Origin: an uncultured Candidatus Berkelbacteria bacterium
GTDB taxonomy: Bacteria > Patescibacteriota > UBA1384 > CAJBMM01
Direction: 5' to 3'
DNA length: 46,792 nt
Assembly (NCBI GenBank): GCA_903954185.1
Contig: CAJBMM010000028.1
Span: 1 to 46,792 of the forward strand
The notes under the pieces were generated by a model, which ran no database searches, was not told where the DNA came from, and saw nothing but the letters and a program-made list of their open reading frames with translations. Made by a program: the position numbers and the translations under genes. Shown here one piece after another: positions 7,663 through 42,872 of this stretch. Every line of letters starts with the position of its first letter. The first letter of the stretch is position 1.

Positions 7663-7698
7663 TAGAATCCTTGATAAGTTAAAAGTGACGGCTTAACC

Positions 7699-7818
7699 GT
7701 CATCCTCGACGCGAGTATGACGAGCAATTATTCGAGGATCCACAAAATTATTATATAGATTCCTACTTTCGCAGAAATGGCAATAATTTACCATACTACT
7801 TCTACCACCTACCACCTT
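7699..7818 (-). repeat. Palindromic repeat, left copy flanking the YdjM-like gene
   Basis: About 120 bases here are, by eye, a near-identical inverted copy of 8420-8537, with a few substitutions and short indels. The core has GTCAT...ATGAC-type ends and an inner hairpin (TTTCTGCGAAAGYAGGAA). The outer part is a run of GGTGGTAG-like words. Together the two copies bracket a single gene. Confidence 0.85.
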
Positions 7819-7838: not shown

Positions 7839-8408
7839 ATGACAGGAAAAACACATCGCATGATTGGTATGACAAGCGGTTTGGGATATCTGCTATTATC
7901 TCAAGATGCTTTTTATCAACCGGCCACTTTTGCATCGGTAATAGTAATTTCTTATCTCGGTTCCCTCTTGCCAGATATAGATACCTCGACGGGCGATATA
8001 TGGCATTCTTTGCCCTTTGGACACTCCGTTGGTAAAGTGGCAAGCAATTTTTTAGAGCACAGAAATTTAACTCACTCACTTTTGGGGTTTGGCTTAATCT
8101 CTTGGGGAGTATTAGCCTTATTGCATGCTATGCCCACATATTGGGGGCTAGATGCTAATACTCTTTGGATTATTTTTATTATATCTTACGGAAGTCATTT
8201 ATTAGCAGATATGATTACAGTAGAAGGTGTCCCGTTACTTTTCCCATACGGAAGAATGATTGGAATTCCGCCTAAACCCTTTCATGGCATACGAATAGTT
8301 ACTGGCAAATGGTTTGAAAACTTGGTAATATTCCCAATCGTTAACCTTGCACTTATTGGCCTAATTGTGTCAAAGTGGGCAGAGATAAAGATGATGATAA
8401 TTAAGTGA
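7839..8408 (+). CDS. YdjM-like (DUF457) membrane-bound metal-dependent hydrolase
   Basis: A 189-residue membrane protein with the conserved His/Asp pattern of the YdjM/DUF457 family: GKTHRMIG near the N-terminus, GSLLPDIDT, FLEHRNLTHSLLG, and SHLLADMITVEG. These residues would coordinate metal at the membrane face. Four or five hydrophobic segments separate them. The true substrate of the family is not firmly known. I prefer ATG 7839 to GTG 7833 because the family start is compact and a -10 box sits 6 bases upstream. The gene stands alone between inverted copies of a long repeat (7699-7818 and 8420-8537), so it may have moved or duplicated with them. Composition matches its neighbours. Confidence 0.82.
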   Translation: MTGKTHRMIGMTSGLGYLLLSQDAFYQPATFASVIVISYLGSLLPDIDTSTGDIWHSLPFGHSVGKVASNFLEHRNLTHSLLGFGLISWGVLALLHAMPTYWGLDANTLWIIFIISYGSHLLADMITVEGVPLLFPYGRMIGIPPKPFHGIRIVTGKWFENLVIFPIVNLALIGLIVSKWAEIKMMIIK

Positions 8409-8419
8409 GGTTACAGGTT

Positions 8420-8537
8420 GTAGGTGGTAGCTGGTAGAGGTAGTAAGGTAAATTATTGTCATTTCTGCGAAAGCAGGAATCTATATAATCTTGTGGATCC
8501 TCGAATAATTGTTCGTCATACTCGCGTCGAGGATGAC
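8420..8537 (+). repeat. Palindromic repeat, right copy flanking the YdjM-like gene
   Basis: Inverted partner of 7699-7818. It holds a complete GTCATTTCTGCG...GAGGATGAC unit (8459-8537) plus the GGTGGTAG-rich outer part. It ends 49 bases before the galE start. An open frame running from here into galE (8509) is repeat sequence, not part of the protein. Confidence 0.85.
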
Positions 8538-8586
8538 AGAAAAAATGTCATTTTGCATTTTGAGATTTGAATTACGAAGGAGTAAT

Positions 8587-9576
8587 ATGAAACCAATTTT
8601 AGTTACAGGCGGAGCTGGTTATATAGGCAGCCATGCAGTTAAAGAATTAATTAAATCTGGCCGAAAGGTAGTTGTTGTCGATAATTTATCGGCTGGACAC
8701 AAAGGGGCAGTACCAGAAGGAGTAGATTTTGAGCAAGCCGATACTCGTGATTACGATAAGATGCGGGATATTTTAGAAAAATATCAGCCAAGTGCGGTAA
8801 TGCATTTCGCGGCCTTCCTTGCAGTGGGGGAATCGGTAGAGAAACCAATCGAATATTACGATAACAATCTGGTGGGCGTACTGCGATTGCTAACCGCTAT
8901 GCGTGATACAGGCGTCAAACAATTTATATTTTCATCAACCGCTGCTGTTTATGGCCAACCAGAGAATATACCTGTTACCGAAAAAGAGTCACTTAAACCA
9001 GAAAGCCCATATGGCCAATCAAAGTTAGCAGTAGAACAAATGTTGCCATGGGTTGAGCGTGCATATGGCATTAATTATACGGTTTTACGCTATTTTAATG
9101 CTGCTGGAGCAGATAAAGATGGAGAAATTGGGCTCGATAACGAAAATGCCACCAATTTAATTCCCAAAGCCATTTACTCGCTATTGCACAATGGATCAAT
9201 CGAGATTTTTGGTACCGATTATGATACGCCAGATGGCACTGGGGTGCGTGACTATATTCATGTGTCCGATTTAGCTACGGCGCACATCAAAGCACTTGAA
9301 AGGCTAGAAAATGGCGGAAAAAGCGACATATTTAATCTTGGCACTGGTAAAGGAACTAGCGTAAAAGAGATAATCAGTGCAGTAGAAAAAGCCTCGGGTA
9401 AAAAATTAGATGTTAAAATTTCTTCACGCCGCGCTGGAGACCCTGCTAAAGTTTGGGCCGATAGCTCCAAAGCCCAGAGCGAGCTTGGTTGGAGCCCAAA
9501 ATATACTAATATCGAAGAAATAGTTGCCACTTCTTGGAACTGGCATTCAACCCATCCAGATGGATATAAAAGTTAA
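8587..9576 (+). CDS. galE: UDP-glucose 4-epimerase
   Basis: A short-chain dehydrogenase-type epimerase of 329 residues that interconverts UDP-glucose and UDP-galactose (or the N-acetyl forms), supplying sugars for surface glycans. It opens with the NAD loop TGGAGYIGSHAV. It has the catalytic Ser/Thr and YxxxK set (FSSTAAVYG, then SPYGQSKLAVE) and the GalE block YFNAAGAD. DGTGVRDYIHVSDLA and FNLGTGKGTSVKE follow as in the family. I chose ATG 8587 because GAAGGAG lies 5 bases upstream; the longer frame from 8509 would translate a repeat. It is a single gene, facing the metallo-hydrolase at 9655. Substrate range cannot be read from the sequence. Confidence 0.92.
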   Translation: MKPILVTGGAGYIGSHAVKELIKSGRKVVVVDNLSAGHKGAVPEGVDFEQADTRDYDKMRDILEKYQPSAVMHFAAFLAVGESVEKPIEYYDNNLVGVLRLLTAMRDTGVKQFIFSSTAAVYGQPENIPVTEKESLKPESPYGQSKLAVEQMLPWVERAYGINYTVLRYFNAAGADKDGEIGLDNENATNLIPKAIYSLLHNGSIEIFGTDYDTPDGTGVRDYIHVSDLATAHIKALERLENGGKSDIFNLGTGKGTSVKEIISAVEKASGKKLDVKISSRRAGDPAKVWADSSKAQSELGWSPKYTNIEEIVATSWNWHSTHPDGYKS

Positions 9577-11525: not shown

Positions 11526-14026
11526 ATGAAACACCAAAAATTGAATTTAAACAAAATGCCGCCCAATTCTTAAAGAAGTGGAAGAATGATCAAAGTTTCA
11601 GGGTATTAGGTAAAGTAGTTTCTTGGGGAATTATTGCGCTATTATTGGTGGTATTTGTACTCGCAACCATGCAAGGGGTATCAGAAAATCATCTACCCAT
11701 AGCCTCGTTGTTTTATCTCAACCCAATGGTGCGTATATTTTGGTTAAATGTGCTTGGTGGCATTGTATCGCTATATATTTTAGATGAAATTAAGCGTCGT
11801 GAAGCATATACCTCGAGCGACGATGTATTCAGTTTTGCCGATGCTTATTCTAAAAACTTTATAGCTCAAGTACTGGAAATTAGTAAAAAAAATAAACAGC
11901 AACTAAACGCGCGATTAATGTTGCGCATGATGCTTTTGAGCTCGTATATGCAGATGATTTTTAATCGAATGGAAGTGTCTGCTGCATCGGTTGAGAAAAC
12001 AATCGATAGCGCATTATTGCCAATAAATGAGCCATTAACTGGGCATGAAGTAGAAATTGATGCAAATTTGCAAGAATTTATTCTAATTAGTGCTAACAGA
12101 GCACGCGATAGAGGTGATGATTCGTTTGGATTAGCCGATGTATTGCTTACACTTTTAGAAAAAGACGTAGAAATTGCCAAGTTTTTTGACCCACTAGATA
12201 TCAATCCAGAAAGACTTACGGTTGTTTTGGGTTGGGTATCAACTAAAAATCAGTTGCTACATAATTATCAAGCACTTAAAACGCGTAGAATGCATACTGG
12301 GCCAGTTAATCAAGCATGGACATCTTCTCCTACACCTATTCTCAACCACTATGGACGAGATTTAACGGTTATGGCCTCTTACGGAAATGTGCCGTTAGTT
12401 AACGTGCGTAAGCCCGAAGTACAAACCGCGATAGAAATACTTAGTCGAACTACAAAAAACAGTTTACTTTTAGCTGGCGACCCAGGTTCTGGTCGTGGCG
12501 CAATTGTGGCACAGATTGCTTTGAAAATGCTTAGCCAAGATGTTCCTAAAGAGTTGCAAGATAAAAGATTGGTACAATTAGATGTTGCTTCGTTACATGG
12601 GGCAGCCGAGGGCTTTGAGGTAACATTTGGGCAACTATTAGATGAAACAGAACGTTCTGGGAATGTTATTTTGTTTATACCAAATTTGCAAGATTTAGCT
12701 ACTGATAAAACCTCTGGTGTGGCCTCGGCCGAACTACTTTTGCCAATATTACAACGTAGTCGCATGCAGGTTATTGGTGCTACTACTATGCAAGAATATC
12801 GCGAACAAATTGAGCCAAATCAAACATTTGCTAACTCTTTTGGAATTATAGAAGTAAAAGAGATGAGCCAAAAAGATGCTTTAACTGTATTAGAGGAAAC
12901 TTCGGTAGATTTAGAGGGCAGGCATGGCGTTAAAATATCGGTTAAGGCAATGGAAGATGCCGTTGCACTATCTTCTGAATATATTCACGATAAAGTACTG
13001 CCAGAAAAAGCAATTGATATTTTAGATGAGGCCGCAGTAAAAGCCTCCAACGCCAAGCGTAAAGAGGTAACTGATGCCGATGTGCGCGAAGTTGTGAGCC
13101 GAGTGGCTAACGTACCTGTTGCCGCAGTGGCACAAAATGAACAAAAGGTGTTATTAGATTTAGAAAAGTTAATAAAAGAGCGCGTGGTGGGTCAAAATGA
13201 GGCTGTTGTAGCAGTAGCTCAAGCATTAAGACGCGCTAGGGCTGGCTTAACCGATAAAAAACGCCCAATTGGCACATTTTTATTTGTTGGGCCTACTGGC
13301 GTGGGTAAAACCGAATTAGCAAAAGCGTTATCTTCTAGTTATTTTTCTGGTGAGTCTAATATGGTGCGCTTGGATATGTCTGAATTTCAGGGTGGCGGGT
13401 CTATACAAAGGTTAATTGGAGAAGGCAGCACTGAAGGTTTATTGACTGGTCCTGTCAGAAATAAACCATTTGCCCTACTTCTGTTAGACGAATTTGAAAA
13501 ATCGAGTGATGAAATTCGTAATTTATTTCTATCAATATTTGATGATGGGCGCATTACCGATGGAGCAGGGCATGTGGTAGATTTTACAAATACAATTATG
13601 ATTGCCACATCAAATGCCGGCTCACTAGAAATTCAAGACGCCATTAAAGGTGGGCAAACCTATGAACAAATTCAAACGTTTTTAACTAGCGATTTATTAC
13701 CAAAGATTTTTAGACCAGAACTGTTAAACCGTTTTGATGGCGTAATTGCCTTTAAGCCGCTAACCCAAGACGAAGTATTGCAAATTGCACGACTGCAAAT
13801 TACGGGTGTTATAAAACAAACCGAGGAAAGCACTGGTATTCATTTAACCGTTACAGAGGCTGCGATAGAAAAATTAGCACAGCTAGGATTTGACCCAACT
13901 TTGGGTGGTAGACCGCTGCGTCGCGCCATTCAAGACCATTTAGAAGCACCTTTGGCGAATAAGATATTGGCCGGTGGGTTGAAGAGGGGTGATACGTTGG
14001 CATTGGATGTTGGGGATTTGATTTAA
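11522..14026 (+). CDS. Membrane-anchored Clp/AAA+ ATPase with degenerate first ATPase domain
   Basis: 834 residues. Two hydrophobic segments (about 31-50 and 62-88) anchor the protein, followed by a Clp N-like helical domain (about 100-250) and two AAA+ domains. D2 (about 545-834) has an intact Walker A GPTGVGKT (590-597), Walker B LLLLDE, sensor IATSNAG and the C-terminal GGRPLRR arginine. D1 (about 290-505) is ruined: Walker A reads GDPGSGRG, with Arg for the key Lys, and Walker B reads ILFIPN with no Asp-Glu. There is no middle coiled coil like ClpB. I also miss the ClpP-docking [IVL]GF loop and the aromatic GYVG pore loop of D2 (here RLIGEGSTEGLLT). Start ATG 11522 overlaps the previous stop. 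It is clearly of ClpA/ClpC descent, but a standard unfoldase role is doubtful. Confidence 0.88.
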   Translation: MNETPKIEFKQNAAQFLKKWKNDQSFRVLGKVVSWGIIALLLVVFVLATMQGVSENHLPIASLFYLNPMVRIFWLNVLGGIVSLYILDEIKRREAYTSSDDVFSFADAYSKNFIAQVLEISKKNKQQLNARLMLRMMLLSSYMQMIFNRMEVSAASVEKTIDSALLPINEPLTGHEVEIDANLQEFILISANRARDRGDDSFGLADVLLTLLEKDVEIAKFFDPLDINPERLTVVLGWVSTKNQLLHNYQALKTRRMHTGPVNQAWTSSPTPILNHYGRDLTVMASYGNVPLVNVRKPEVQTAIEILSRTTKNSLLLAGDPGSGRGAIVAQIALKMLSQDVPKELQDKRLVQLDVASLHGAAEGFEVTFGQLLDETERSGNVILFIPNLQDLATDKTSGVASAELLLPILQRSRMQVIGATTMQEYREQIEPNQTFANSFGIIEVKEMSQKDALTVLEETSVDLEGRHGVKISVKAMEDAVALSSEYIHDKVLPEKAIDILDEAAVKASNAKRKEVTDADVREVVSRVANVPVAAVAQNEQKVLLDLEKLIKERVVGQNEAVVAVAQALRRARAGLTDKKRPIGTFLFVGPTGVGKTELAKALSSSYFSGESNMVRLDMSEFQGGGSIQRLIGEGSTEGLLTGPVRNKPFALLLLDEFEKSSDEIRNLFLSIFDDGRITDGAGHVVDFTNTIMIATSNAGSLEIQDAIKGGQTYEQIQTFLTSDLLPKIFRPELLNRFDGVIAFKPLTQDEVLQIARLQITGVIKQTEESTGIHLTVTEAAIEKLAQLGFDPTLGGRPLRRAIQDHLEAPLANKILAGGLKRGDTLALDVGDLI

Positions 14027-36358: not shown

Positions 36359-36402
36359 TAAAATAGGAAAGACGTCAATACATACAGATCGGGTACATTA
36401 AT

Positions 36403-36511
36403 GTCATTTCGAGTTCTGTGAGAAATCCCGTCATATCGGCAAAAGCGGGACCTCTCACCCCGCTCAGCGGGGTATTCGGGACGCTTAGCGTTTCACCGAG
36501 TTCGAGATGAC
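36403..36511. repeat. Palindromic intergenic repeat (GTCAT/ATGAC type)
   Basis: Begins GTCATTTCGAGTTCTGTGAG and ends CACCGAGTTCGAGATGAC, with a strong inner hairpin CCCCGCTCAGCGGGG. It fills the gap between the helicase gene and the next gene. Confidence 0.8.
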
Positions 36512-36537
36512 AAACAAAAATGTATCCATGTAGCTCT

Positions 36538-38439: not shown

Positions 38440-39098
38440 TGTTATATGTGGTAGCTACTCCAATCGGGAATTTGGGTGATATTTCGATGCGCGCAAAAGA
38501 AGTATTAATTGCATCTAAATATATTGCCTGTGAAGATACCCGCCATAGTAAAATATTATTAGAAAGTATTGGGGCAAAGGGCAGGGCAATATCGTTTCAT
38601 GCACATTCTGGGCAGCTAAAGTTTGAACAAATTCTAGATTTGTTGGTTGCTGGTGAAGACGTAGCATTAATCTCTGATGCTGGTACCCCGGCAATCTCGG
38701 ACCCGGGCGGAAAACTGATCGAACTCGCACATCAAAATGACATTATTATTAGCCCCATTCCTGGGCCTTCATCGGTAATAACTGCACTTTCGGTGGCCGG
38801 GTTTGAGGCGGATCAATTTATTTATTATGGTTACTTACCAAAGAAAAAAGGTAAGCAGACAATGCTCAAAGAGATATCTGAGCAAAAGATGACCTCGGTT
38901 ATTTTTGAAAGTCCACATAGAATTGAGCGCACATTTCAAGATTTAGCTACTTTGCTTGCCCCAGAACGTCGCATTTGCATTTGCCGAGAGTTAACCAAAA
39001 AATTTGAAGAAATTATCTGTGATAGCATTTCGAATATCGAATTTGATAAAATAAAACCATTAGGAGAGTTTGTTATTGTGATAGAAGGAATAAAATGA
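38439..39098 (+). CDS. rsmI: 16S rRNA (cytidine1402-2'-O)-methyltransferase
   Basis: 219 residues. Tetrapyrrole methylase fold: LYVVATPIGNLGDISMRA, ACEDTRHSKILLE, LISDAGTPAISDPGG, SPIPGPSSVITALSVAGF and YGYLPKKKG are all family blocks. It modifies C1402 in the decoding centre. The ending is short, without the extra C-terminal domain of longer homologues. It overlaps rsmA by one base and the Fic gene by four. Confidence 0.95.
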   Translation: MLYVVATPIGNLGDISMRAKEVLIASKYIACEDTRHSKILLESIGAKGRAISFHAHSGQLKFEQILDLLVAGEDVALISDAGTPAISDPGGKLIELAHQNDIIISPIPGPSSVITALSVAGFEADQFIYYGYLPKKKGKQTMLKEISEQKMTSVIFESPHRIERTFQDLATLLAPERRICICRELTKKFEEIICDSISNIEFDKIKPLGEFVIVIEGIK

Positions 39099-40150
39099 TC
39101 GAGGGATTTATTAGTGCCCCACAATATAAATTGAGCGCAAGTATTATACGATCTATTGCGCGAGCCGAACGTGCTCAAGGCATTATTGATGCTTCGCCAT
39201 TATTGCCAGTGCGCGAGCGTGAGTTGCGACATGAAGCCATGTTGGCAACTATTCATGCATCAACTCATATCGAAGGAAATATATTGGGTTTGGGTGCGGT
39301 TGAGCGTATTTTGGCGGGTGAAAATGTTACGGCTCGCCAGCGCGACGTGCAAGAAATCATTAATTATCGCCATGTTTTAGATTATGTCGAAAAGGTTTAT
39401 CGCGATACGCGGCATCCATTTAGTGATGTGATGATTCGTGAGTTTCACAAAGTATTAATGCGCGAATTGCTATCTGGCGACCAACTTGGAGAATTTAGGG
39501 CTGTGCAAAATTATATTGTAGATACTAGAACCGGCCGTACTATTTATACGCCACCGCCTGTTAAGGACGTACCACACTTGATGCTTAAAATGACTGATTG
39601 GATTAACAGCATCAAACCAGAAAGTTGCCATCCTATTATCAAGGCCGCATTAACCCACTATATGATGGAGGCGATTCATCCGTTTGTAGATGGTAATGGG
39701 CGTGTGGGTAGGGTGGTTTCGATGTTCTTATTGTATCGTGATGGCTACGATACGCGTCGTTTATTTTCTCTCGAAGAGTATTATGATCGAAACGCTAAAG
39801 TATATTATGAATCGCTGCAGTCCGTCCTCCGTTCACGCGGTGATTCCACACTATGGGTTGAATATTTCGCGCAAGGATTTGCTGAGCAAATAGAAGAAGT
39901 AGCTGAAAAAATAAAGCAGTATTTACAAGGTGAAAAAGATAGAGCAAAATTCTCGCGGCACGAACTTAATAAAAGGCAATATGAGGCTGTACGTTGGATG
40001 CAACATCGTGGTTCTATTACCGCCGCAGATTATGCCGAACAGTTTAAAGTATCTAAAAGAACAGCCAATTATGATCTATCAGATTTATTAGGCAAAGGTG
40101 TCGCCAAACAAGAGGGCGAATCCCGCGCCTCTAAGTTCAAATTAGTTTGA
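39095..40150 (+). CDS. Fic-domain protein with C-terminal winged helix
   Basis: 351 residues. A Fic-N helical domain is followed by the catalytic Fic motif HPFVDGNGRVGR (195-206), intact for AMP transfer to target proteins. The inhibitory helix motif STHIEGN (56-62, consensus [S/T]xxxE[G/N]) precedes the core, which places it in the self-inhibited class II. Residues about 285-351 form a winged-helix domain (SITAADYAEQFKVSKRTANYDLSDLL). There is no antitoxin gene. It is coupled to rsmI by an ATGA overlap, an unusual neighbour for Fic; a link to translation is possible but unproven. Protein target unknown. Confidence 0.92.
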   Translation: MIEGFISAPQYKLSASIIRSIARAERAQGIIDASPLLPVRERELRHEAMLATIHASTHIEGNILGLGAVERILAGENVTARQRDVQEIINYRHVLDYVEKVYRDTRHPFSDVMIREFHKVLMRELLSGDQLGEFRAVQNYIVDTRTGRTIYTPPPVKDVPHLMLKMTDWINSIKPESCHPIIKAALTHYMMEAIHPFVDGNGRVGRVVSMFLLYRDGYDTRRLFSLEEYYDRNAKVYYESLQSVLRSRGDSTLWVEYFAQGFAEQIEEVAEKIKQYLQGEKDRAKFSRHELNKRQYEAVRWMQHRGSITAADYAEQFKVSKRTANYDLSDLLGKGVAKQEGESRASKFKLV

Positions 40151-40170
40151 CAAAAAGTCCCTCCCAACAT

Positions 40171-40195
40171 GTCATCTCGAGCTCGGCGAGAGATC
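40171..40195 (+). repeat. Left half of a split palindromic repeat
   Basis: GTCATCTCGA (40171-40180) and GGCGAGAGATC (40185-40195) are exact inverse complements of TCGAGATGAC (41267-41276) and GATCTCTCGCC (41245-41255). The halves, about 1050 bases apart, enclose the GC-rich gene. Confidence 0.75.
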
Positions 40196-40258
40196 CCTGC
40201 AGGTTCAGTACCGAGCCTATTCACATTAAGCGAGCTAGACTAATGTACTATTTAAGTA

Positions 40259-40288
40259 TATAATAACTACGAAAGTGGCACCTTGCCA
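40259..40288 (+). promoter_or_regulatory. Promoter and leader hairpin of the GC-rich orphan gene
   Basis: TATAAT at 40259-40264 is followed by a small perfect hairpin GTGGCA/TGCCAC (40274-40288) and a roughly 90-base leader. The -35 region is unclear. Confidence 0.4.
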
Positions 40289-40375
40289 CAATCCCCACTA
40301 CAGTAAGGCCATTTAAGGTAAGATTGGACCAAAGGTTCAACGCCTTCTGAACTGGGTACGAAAGGAACATCTTGC

Positions 40376-41080
40376 ATGAGCGCAAGATCGACCAAGCCTG
40401 TCAGCGACGCAGCAACTCGGCATTTGGCTGAGGTGATCGCTGGCCCCACGATCGGAGCGTTAGGGCTGTCTGCAGTGCAAGCCGATGCTCTGAAGGGGAA
40501 CCCATACGCTATTGCAGCAGTACGGGAAGCAATAACCTTGGAGCTCGGGGAAGCTATCCGCCCGTTCATTCCTGTTCAGGTTCCGCGCGCGTCCGATGAT
40601 CTACGGTCAGAGCGTGTGACTCGGCACCTTTTACTGGGGCTGTTCCAAGAAGCTGGGGTACGCATTCTGTGCAATGACCTAAGGCATGCCAGCTTCGGAA
40701 CCGAGATTGACGAACCGGTCCGACTGGATTACATTCTGCTACCAGCTGAGGTCGATGCCATTTTCGCCAAGATGGACTCTGGCGAATTGCCATGGAATCG
40801 GTCTAAAGTGGATCAGCAAGTGCACTTCGGCGGCTCAATCATGGGTGCAGTGGGTGTCCTGATGTCCTTGTATACCTATGTAGAAGCGCGCAAGATACTG
40901 CCCCGACCCGATTGTCGCTGGGAAGTCCGTTGTTCGGAAGCATACCAAGATCACTACACGTACAAGGTTGCCTACAGCCAGAAGGACGGGCTTTGCGTGA
41001 CCTACTACTACCAAGAGCCATACGCGATCACTTGCGCATTTCCCGCAAGAGGTAGCGCTTCTCTGAGTGCTGGTGCCTAG
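40376..41080 (+). CDS. GC-rich orphan protein of unknown function
   Basis: 234 residues with no domain that I recognise. The N-terminal third is Ala-rich and helical (AATRHLAEVIAGPTIGALGL). The middle holds a possible helix pair (HLLLGLFQEAGVRILCNDLRH). A weakly hydrophobic stretch (SIMGAVGVLMSLYTYVEA) precedes a beta-rich, Tyr- and Cys-containing C-terminus (WEVRCSEAYQDHYTYKVAYS, LCVTYYYQEPYAITCAF). No signal peptide. Bases 40441-40500 hold 37 G or C of 60, against 21 of 60 in 39901-39960 of the Fic gene, so the gene is foreign. A ribosome site AAAGGA lies 10 bases before the ATG. It has its own promoter and terminator and lies between split repeat halves: a self-contained inserted unit. Confidence 0.75.
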   Translation: MSARSTKPVSDAATRHLAEVIAGPTIGALGLSAVQADALKGNPYAIAAVREAITLELGEAIRPFIPVQVPRASDDLRSERVTRHLLLGLFQEAGVRILCNDLRHASFGTEIDEPVRLDYILLPAEVDAIFAKMDSGELPWNRSKVDQQVHFGGSIMGAVGVLMSLYTYVEARKILPRPDCRWEVRCSEAYQDHYTYKVAYSQKDGLCVTYYYQEPYAITCAFPARGSASLSAGA

Positions 41081-41107
41081 TACGGCCATGTGCTAGTGCC
41101 ATTCGAT

Positions 41108-41144
41108 GGGCGCCTGCTATCCAGCAGGCGCCCGAATTGTTTTT
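41108..41144 (+). terminator. Terminator of the GC-rich orphan gene
   Basis: A perfect 11 bp stem GGGCGCCTGCT / AGCAGGCGCCC (41108-41133, loop ATCC) followed by GAATTGTTTTT. It is much more GC-rich than other terminators here, in keeping with the gene. Confidence 0.85.
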
Positions 41145-41244
41145 AGAGGGGGTGTTATTAGGCAGTTTGAGATTATTTGTGGTATAAATAGGGAGAATGA
41201 AATATAAAGTTCGCGTGTAATTATGCATTTGCCAACCTTGACGA

Positions 41245-41276
41245 GATCTCTCGCCGCCAAGCGGTGTCGAGATGAC
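41245..41276 (-). repeat. Right half of a split palindromic repeat
   Basis: Inverse partner of 40171-40195: GATCTCTCGCC then TCGAGATGAC at the outer end. Joined, the halves would form a typical GTCAT...ATGAC element such as 36403-36511. Confidence 0.75.
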
Positions 41277-41384
41277 AAAAGAAGGTTTTAAAGAGATTGC
41301 TTCTTCCTTCGACAAGCTCAGGATGTCGCAATGACAGCGTAAAGTCTCGGCAATCTTAGGTTATTGCAATGACAGGATAGAAAT

Positions 41385-42872
41385 ATGAAATATTTTATTA
41401 CTACACCAATTTATTATGTAAATGATGCGCCGCATATTGGGCATTTGTACACCACACTAGCGGGGGATATTTTGGTGCGTTATCACAAGCTAATAGGCGA
41501 CGACGTTTATCTTCTGACAGGTACAGATGAACATGGTGCAAAAATTGCCGAGGTTGCCGAAAAAAAGGGTATTGAGCCAAAAGAGTTTGCCGATCAAATT
41601 TCGGCACAGTTTAAATCACTTTGGGCAAAGTACGATGTTAAATTCGATCGCTTTATCCGCACTACCGATGCAGATCACGAAATTACGGTGGCAGAATTTT
41701 TAACTAAACTTAAAGAAAAAGATTTTATTTATAAGGGCGAATACAAAGGCTTGTATTGCCGTGGTTGCGAATCTTATAAAAAGCAATCCGAGCTGGTGGA
41801 TGGAAAGTGCCCCGATCATAATCGGGTTCCAGAAGAACTGTCGGAACCAGCCTACTTTTTTAAATTATCGCAATTCAAATCGCAATTAATCGAATTAATT
41901 AAATGTAATGCTTTACTAATACAGCCAGAAATTAGAAAAAATGAAGTCTTATCATTTTTACAAGGTCAAGAGCTAGAAGATGTGGCTATTTCGCGTCAGA
42001 ATGTAGCGTGGGGCATTCCTTTGCCTTGGGACAACAAGCACACCATTTATGTTTGGGTAGACGCGCTGATCAACTACTATACGGCTGCAAAAGAAAAAAA
42101 CTTATGGCCAGCAGATTTGCATTTAATGGCTAAAGATATTTTGCGATTTCACTGTGTAATTTGGCCTGCCATGCTAATAGCAATTGGCGAAAAACCGCCT
42201 AAATCGGTTTTCGTGCATGGTTATTTTACTATTGATGGTCAAAAAATGAGTAAAAGCCTTGGCAACGTGGTAGATCCAGATAAACTGCTAGAACAGTATC
42301 CACGTGATGTAATTAGAGTATTTCTATTTAAGGCATTTCCTTTTGGCAGCGATGGCGATTTTTCATTTGATTTGCTGAAAGAATTTTATAACGGTCAATT
42401 GGCAAATGAGTTGGGCAATTTGGTGCAGCGCGTGTTAACTATGGTCAAGAATTATCAAAACGGTGTAATCACAAAGCCTAAAGATATCGATCCTACTTTT
42501 GAAATTGATAAAGTTTCCGAAACCTGGTCATTGTGGAAGTCGAGTTTAGATAATTTACAATTCGAACTAGGTTTAAAAGCTATTTGGGCGCTTATTAAAT
42601 ATGCAAATCAGTACATTGATGATAATAAGCCTTGGGGGCTAGCAAAATCAGATAGTGAAAAGTTAGCAATTGTACTATATAATTTGACTGAGGTTATAAG
42701 ACATCTATCTATCTTGCTTTTACCATATATGCCAGATACGGCAAGCGAGATCTCTAACCGTTTAGGTATAAAGTTGCAAGAAGACTTGTTAGTAGATAAA
42801 CAAAATTGGGGCGTCCTTAAAGACGGAACAAAGATAGAGTTGAGTGAGGCGCTTTTTCCAAGGAGGGGTTAA
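41385..42872 (+). CDS. metG: Methionyl-tRNA synthetase
   Basis: 495 residues. Charges tRNA-Met. Class I motifs: TPIYYVNDAPHIGHLYTT (HIGH) and GQKMSKSLGN (KMSKS). The connective domain has the metal-type cysteines CRGCES...GKCPDH, of which one knuckle is visible. There is no C-terminal tRNA-binding (EMAP-like) extension. The upstream AGGATAGAAAT is a weak ribosome site. The next gene starts directly at its stop. Confidence 0.95.
   Translation: MKYFITTPIYYVNDAPHIGHLYTTLAGDILVRYHKLIGDDVYLLTGTDEHGAKIAEVAEKKGIEPKEFADQISAQFKSLWAKYDVKFDRFIRTTDADHEITVAEFLTKLKEKDFIYKGEYKGLYCRGCESYKKQSELVDGKCPDHNRVPEELSEPAYFFKLSQFKSQLIELIKCNALLIQPEIRKNEVLSFLQGQELEDVAISRQNVAWGIPLPWDNKHTIYVWVDALINYYTAAKEKNLWPADLHLMAKDILRFHCVIWPAMLIAIGEKPPKSVFVHGYFTIDGQKMSKSLGNVVDPDKLLEQYPRDVIRVFLFKAFPFGSDGDFSFDLLKEFYNGQLANELGNLVQRVLTMVKNYQNGVITKPKDIDPTFEIDKVSETWSLWKSSLDNLQFELGLKAIWALIKYANQYIDDNKPWGLAKSDSEKLAIVLYNLTEVIRHLSILLLPYMPDTASEISNRLGIKLQEDLLVDKQNWGVLKDGTKIELSEALFPRRG

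What the first reader, a model, noticed from the sequence alone, without database searches (positions are those of the whole stretch)
40171..41276. GC-rich orphan gene inserted inside a palindromic repeat
Two exact arm pairs (10 and 11 bases) at 40171-40195 and 41245-41276 are the two ends of one palindromic element, now about 1050 bases apart. Between them lies a complete unit with promoter, 234-residue gene and GC-rich terminator. Composition is clearly foreign (37 of 60 G+C against 21 of 60 in the neighbour). No transposase is visible, so this may be a cargo cassette moved in trans or by a route that targets these hairpins.
Basis: partly seen in the sequence, partly recalled or inferred. 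Interest (0 to 1): 0.75.

Follow-up and report, generated by a model that had tools for sequence, protein, structure and literature searches.

The report
Foreign orphan gene between hairpin repeats
A small-genome bacterium has gained one foreign-looking gene of unknown function in the gap between two conserved genes, and the short hairpin repeats on either side are common genome-wide repeats that bracket its ordinary genes about as often, so the arrangement is probably ordinary.

Summary
Inverted arms lie at 40170-40197 and 41243-41277. Between them is a G+C-rich unit: promoter-like site, 234-codon ORF and strong terminator. The closest relative held has about 60 bp between fic and metG and no insert, so the gene is a lineage-specific gain.

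The interpretation mostly fails. The arms are two copies of a dispersed repeat (24 scored halves in 712 kb). Intact palindromes of this family (74-121 bp) pair an 'A' half with a 'B' half in 7 of 8 cases. Both arms here are 'A', like all ten other solo copies, so they are probably two separate repeats rather than one split element. GTCAT-type palindromes bracket native genes (15 of 593) about as often as G+C-rich ones (3 of 36, p=0.08); a de novo repeat set gives 12% against 13% (p=0.77). About 35 other G+C-rich ORFs occur, mostly unbracketed. No Y1/RAYT or IS110/Piv transposase was found.

Most likely this is ordinary horizontal acquisition into a repeat-rich intergenic gap. One unexpected point: the leader (40287-40366) resembles the Rfam DUF1874 cis-regulatory RNA, below the curated cut-off (24.9 against 42 bits) but the best hit among 380 phylum genomes.

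The parts
39095..40150 (+). fic (Fic/DOC family), left neighbour; conserved rsmI-fic-metG block
   Evidence: Pfam PF02661 E 2e-19; orthologue 59% identical in same order in relative G001
40170..40197 (+). left arm: solo A-type copy of the TGTCATCTCGAG..CGAGAGATCCCGTCAG hairpin repeat
   Evidence: nhmmer E 5.5e-9; A/B score 9/5; pattern hits elsewhere in the genome
40236..40264 (+). promoter-like site TAGACT-17-TATAAT
   Evidence: consensus scan, 10 of 12
40287..40366 (+). candidate structured leader RNA, resembles Rfam RF02953 (DUF1874 RNA); ends on the AGGA ribosome-binding site 40363-40366
   Evidence: 24.9 bits, model 1-93 complete, E 0.0077 against 4227 families; single hit in own genome; best of 380 phylum genomes; below gathering score 42
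40376..41080 (+). 234-codon orphan ORF, 55.5% G+C
   Evidence: no family in Pfam, PHROGs, NCBIfam or PADLOC over cut-off; no relative in the searches; codon-position signal
41107..41134 (+). G+C-rich intrinsic terminator
   Evidence: 12-pair stem, 4-base loop, AATTGTTTTT tail
41243..41277 (-). right arm: second A-type copy of the same repeat, inverted, with an extra small hairpin CCGCTTGGCGG
   Evidence: nhmmer E 3e-3; A/B score 9/7
41309..41375 (-). two further GTCATTGC-type hairpin repeats
   Evidence: direct repeat family D1
41385..42872 (+). metG, right neighbour
   Evidence: Pfam PF09334 E 1.6e-101; synteny
36402..36512 (+). intact 111-bp palindrome of the same family, unsplit, with one A and one B half (reference copy in this window)
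   Evidence: DNA fold z -3.9

Best explanation
A single foreign gene of unknown function, complete with promoter, leader and terminator, was gained by horizontal transfer in the short spacer between fic and metG of a roughly 1-Mb bacterium (probably Patescibacteria). That spacer has also collected several copies of the genome's dispersed intergenic hairpin repeats. Two solo A-type copies happen to lie in inverted orientation on either side of the gene. They are ordinary intergenic repeats, not the two halves of one element and not demonstrably the machinery that brought the gene in. Shown: the gain, the foreign composition, the dispersed repeat family and the A/A make-up of the arms. Inferred: entry by DNA uptake (or an undetected phage or plasmid) and illegitimate or repeat-assisted recombination; expression from its own promoter.
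For: Same-family relative G001 has uvrD-G5-rsmA-rsmI-fic-(about 60 bp)-metG without the gene. No copy of the gene was found in 98 relatives, 54 other genomes of the class, 379 of the phylum, or in phages and plasmids. G+C z = 3.7. The repeat family is dispersed: 24 scored halves in 712 kb and 143 GTCAT-type halves of all kinds. Arms are A+A while intact elements are A+B. Both-side bracketing is about equally frequent for native genes. About 35 other G+C-rich ORFs occur in the same genome, several also orphans and some with known families (CheR, radical SAM, lyase, DUF1559), mostly without bracketing repeats.
Against: The two arms are close together and convergent, and one other pair of solo copies (C40 21421/21623) is convergent too. 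GTCAT-motif bracketing of G+C-rich genes is slightly raised (8% against 2.5%, p=0.08, index case included). The random-placement test, which ignores gene structure, gave a stronger excess (4 against 0.3 expected). No other genome of the same genus is held, so the immediate ancestor of the site was not seen.
Confidence: 0.7

Rival explanations
1. One reading: a single palindromic element was split by insertion of the cassette at its tip, and its halves are the two arms.
For: Intact palindromes of the family exist, one of them 3.7 kb upstream at 36402-36512; the arms are inverted and complementary.
Against: Both arms have the A-type inner end (scores 9/5 and 9/7), whereas 7 of 8 intact elements are A+B; solo A copies are as common as intact ones; the closest relative held has no palindrome at the site.
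Confidence: 0.1
2. Composite mobile unit: two A-type repeats in inverted orientation act as terminal repeats for a transposase or recombinase supplied in trans, moving whatever lies between, as proposed for Neisseria dRS3 repeats and the Nf1 phage integrase (PMC3898611).
For: Convergent A/A ends here and at C40 21421/21623; another gene (YdjM family) at 7839-8408 lies between 136-bp inverted repeats; precedent in Neisseria.
Against: No Y1 transposase and no IS110/Piv transposase in the assembly; no target-site duplication visible by eye; foreign genes are not preferentially bracketed. Only two transposase families were tested, and the assembly is 96.6% complete.
Confidence: 0.12
3. Metagenome assembly error: a foreign fragment was joined into the contig at short repeats.
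For: The source is a draft of 43 contigs and is probably a metagenome-assembled genome (inference); short repeats are common misjoin points.
Against: The repeat arms (28-35 bp, diverged) are too short and too different to mislead most assemblers (general knowledge); the strip 41150-41243 inside the right arm has native composition; similar G+C-rich ORFs sit away from repeats on many contigs.
Confidence: 0.07

Closest known systems
Neisserial intergenic mosaic elements (dRS3/RS arrays) and genes gained or lost between them, e.g. pilC1 (PMC3898611)
   Same: Short abundant intergenic inverted repeats, often in arrays; genes present or absent between repeat copies; other palindromes of this genome fit the dRS3 pattern ATTCCC(N8)GGGAAT
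   Different: The two arms here have another sequence; no Piv/IS110-type recombinase was found; no filamentous prophage was identified
REP/BIME elements with RAYT (Y1) transposases
   Same: Single hairpin units and inverted pairs of them dispersed between genes
   Different: No Y1 transposase in the assembly; the RAYT-type foot tetranucleotide was not examined
Miniature inverted-repeat elements (MITEs)
   Same: Intact copies are 74-121 bp palindromes with conserved TGTCAT..ATGACA ends
   Different: No target-site duplication seen by eye and no parent transposon identified
Rfam RF02953, DUF1874 RNA
   Same: Conserved loop CAUnnAAGGUAAG, helices P1-P3 in order, model end on the ribosome-binding site just before a start codon
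   Different: Third hairpin missing, 24.9 bits against gathering 42, and the downstream protein is not DUF1874

Membership tests
   Both arms A-type; 7 of 8 intact copies are A+B
   Same-family relative has a 60-bp spacer without the repeat, but it is a different genus and no nearer genome is held
REP/RAYT system | Y1 (IS200-like) transposase in the genome | tested here: not met
   PF01797 absent; control genomes ring
dRS3/Nf-type phage integration | Piv/IS110-family recombinase | tested here: not met
   PF01548 absent; control genomes ring
dRS3/Nf-type phage integration | Repeat fits ATTCCC(N8)GGGAAT at the arms | tested here: not met
   Arms read GTCATCTCGAG..CGAGAGATC; only other palindromes of the genome fit
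MITE | Terminal inverted repeats in a short non-coding element | tested here: met
   Intact copies of 74-121 bp; holds for the family, not for the 1.1-kb unit
MITE | Target-site duplication | tested here: inconclusive
   None visible by eye at this site or at three intact copies; no systematic test
DUF1874 RNA (RF02953) | Score at or above the curated gathering cut-off | tested here: not met
   24.9 against 42 bits
DUF1874 RNA (RF02953) | Located in the 5' leader of a gene with the conserved core and helices | tested here: met
   40287-40366, 9 nt before the start codon; P1-P3 also recovered by an independent minimum-energy fold, although its z-score is only -0.7
DUF1874 RNA (RF02953) | Downstream DUF1874-domain protein | tested here: not met
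   No Pfam family over cut-off

The most novel reading that the evidence does not exclude
The leader is a genuine divergent DUF1874-type regulatory RNA controlling a new protein family, carried as a riboregulated single-gene cassette (perhaps of phage origin) into a small-genome bacterium, with A-type hairpin copies serving as its ends.
Probability: 0.12. Interest if true: 0.55.

Novelty: new member of a known kind. Interest (0 to 1): 0.27.

Why it matters
It shows how easily a striking layout (foreign gene between inverted hairpins) arises in a genome where both ingredients are common, and gives the control that separates coincidence from mechanism: comparing native and foreign genes for repeat bracketing. 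If the leader RNA is real, it would place a little-studied regulatory RNA on a gene unrelated to its usual partner inside an assembled bacterial genome.

Tried and rejected
Homologues of the protein: Pfam, PHROGs, NCBIfam, PADLOC, PDB, phages, plasmids, viral contigs, GTDB contigs and hundreds of genomes gave nothing convincing; the contig scans rely on exact 8-residue seeds, so distant relatives are not excluded. AlphaFold2 on the single sequence was useless (pLDDT 40), so no fold search was run. Searches for further DUF1874-RNA copies in viral contigs gave no real match: two patterns found nothing, and the eleven matches to a third failed Rfam; the next-best phylum hits (22.1 and 21.2 bits) look like G+C-rich noise. 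The idea that foreign cassettes recur between palindromes looked strong with random placement (4 against 0.3) but disappeared with gene-level controls. The empty-site test within the genus was impossible because no other genome of the genus is held.

Full report
What was checked. The inverted arms exist as described: 12 and 11 bases perfectly complementary at 40184-40195/41245-41256 and 40170-40180/41267-41277. They are not chance: the pattern GTCATCTCGA-N4..20-CGAGAGATC occurs six times in the 998-kb draft genome and its reversed control never. Between the arms lies a 234-codon ORF (40376-41080) with a promoter-like site at 40236-40264, an AGGA ribosome-binding site at 40363-40366 and a 12-pair terminator at 41107-41134. 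Its G+C of 55.5% is 3.7 standard deviations above the ORF mean, codon-position G+C is 0.63/0.46/0.57, and frame 0 has the best codon likelihood of the six frames. It is very probably a real gene.

Where it sits. The neighbours are fic and metG. In the only held relative of the same family, the order uvrD-G5-rsmA-rsmI-fic-metG is conserved with about 60 bp between fic and metG and without the gene or the arm sequence. In other genomes of the class rsmI and metG are usually close neighbours. The 1.2-kb stretch 40151-41384 is therefore a lineage-specific gain. The sampled phylum consists of 0.5-2 Mb genomes; I take it to be Patescibacteria, by inference only.

The repeats. The arms belong to a dispersed family. 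Intact members are palindromes of 74-121 bp with TGTCAT..ATGACA ends, for example 36402-36512 in this window and C8 41922-42033, C17 18231-18304 and C19 8813-8886. In 7 of 8 intact members one half continues GATCCCGTCAG (A) and the other GATCTCGCTTT (B) or a close variant. Some of these halves were scored by script and the rest read by eye. Ten solo copies elsewhere all score closer to A. Both arms of the finding are A (9 against 5, and 9 against 7). This argues against two halves of one element and for two separate solo copies. Other palindrome families are also abundant: 55 places for GTCATTYCTGCG..GCAGGAAT, 143 GTCAT-type halves in 712 kb, and a GTAGCACAAGCTTTAGCTTGG family on C23.

Is the bracketing special? 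Random placement of G+C-rich islands suggested that bracketing by palindromes was more frequent than chance (4 of 77 against 0.3 expected). That test ignores the fact that palindromes and gene ends share the same intergenic gaps. At gene level, palindromes within 400 bp on both sides occur for 15 of 593 native ORFs and 3 of 36 G+C-rich ORFs (p=0.08, index case included); the native ones appear to include housekeeping genes. With repeats defined de novo from intergenic self-comparison the fractions are 51/421 and 4/30 (p=0.77). Among genes with wide gaps, G+C-rich genes are bracketed less often, if anything. The de novo set misses the short arms of the index locus itself, so its sensitivity is limited, and contigs were chosen because they carry repeats. 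Still, there is no good evidence that foreign genes are delivered to or by these hairpins. The assembly has no Y1/RAYT transposase and no IS110/Piv transposase, the two families tied to REP and dRS3 repeats.

The cargo. About 35 other ORFs above 50% G+C are scattered over the 712 kb. Several have no Pfam family; others are a CheR methyltransferase, a radical SAM protein, a lyase, a DHDPS-like protein and a DUF1559/N-methylation protein. Single-gene foreign islands are thus a general feature of this genome. Published work describes natural competence and frequent horizontal transfer in Patescibacteria (PMC12455944), which is a sufficient route. The index protein had no relative in any search, and structure prediction without relatives failed.

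The leader. Rfam's DUF1874 RNA (RF02953, cis-regulatory) matches 40287-40366 over its full length at 24.9 bits, E 0.0077 against all 4227 families, but its gathering score is 42. It is the only hit in the genome and the best among 380 genomes of the phylum. The conserved loop GGCCAU..AAGGUAAGA is preserved, the model's end falls on the ribosome-binding site, and an independent minimum-energy fold gives the same helices, although the fold is not unusually stable (z -0.7). I regard it as a plausible but unproven divergent member; the downstream protein is not DUF1874.

Verdict. The best reading is an ordinary horizontally gained orphan gene in a repeat-rich intergenic gap, with a leader RNA worth a second look.

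Noticed in passing
window 7682-7817 and 8422-8554: 136-bp inverted repeats (87% identical), each a complete GTCAT..ATGAC double hairpin plus about 45 bp, flank a YdjM-family membrane protein gene (7839-8408). A closer fit to a bracketed unit than the given finding; could also be an invertible segment.
   Followed up: partly
G000 C23 (L221) 8116-8824 and 12540-13378: Two G+C-rich ORFs lie between copies of another palindrome family (GTAGCACAAGCTTTAGCTTGG..CCAGACTAAAGTCTGTTCTAC, at least 13 copies in 9 kb).
   Followed up: partly
G000 C2 3489, C18 12846, C41 1432 and 1477: Palindromes GTCATTCCCGCG..GCGGGAAT fit the Neisseria dRS3 pattern ATTCCC(N8)GGGAAT in an unrelated small-genome bacterium.
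   Followed up: no
G000 C37 38389-39174 (L230): G+C-rich ORF with N-terminal methylation motif plus DUF1559 (SBP_bac_10), a combination I recall as typical of Planctomycetota; suggests one donor group of the foreign genes.
   Followed up: no
G000 C8 42034-42560 and C7 7130-7630: Further single-gene G+C-rich units with terminators (C8 also with a TTGACT-16-TATAAT promoter-like site and GGAGGA), directly beside intact palindromes; both proteins lack Pfam families.
   Followed up: partly
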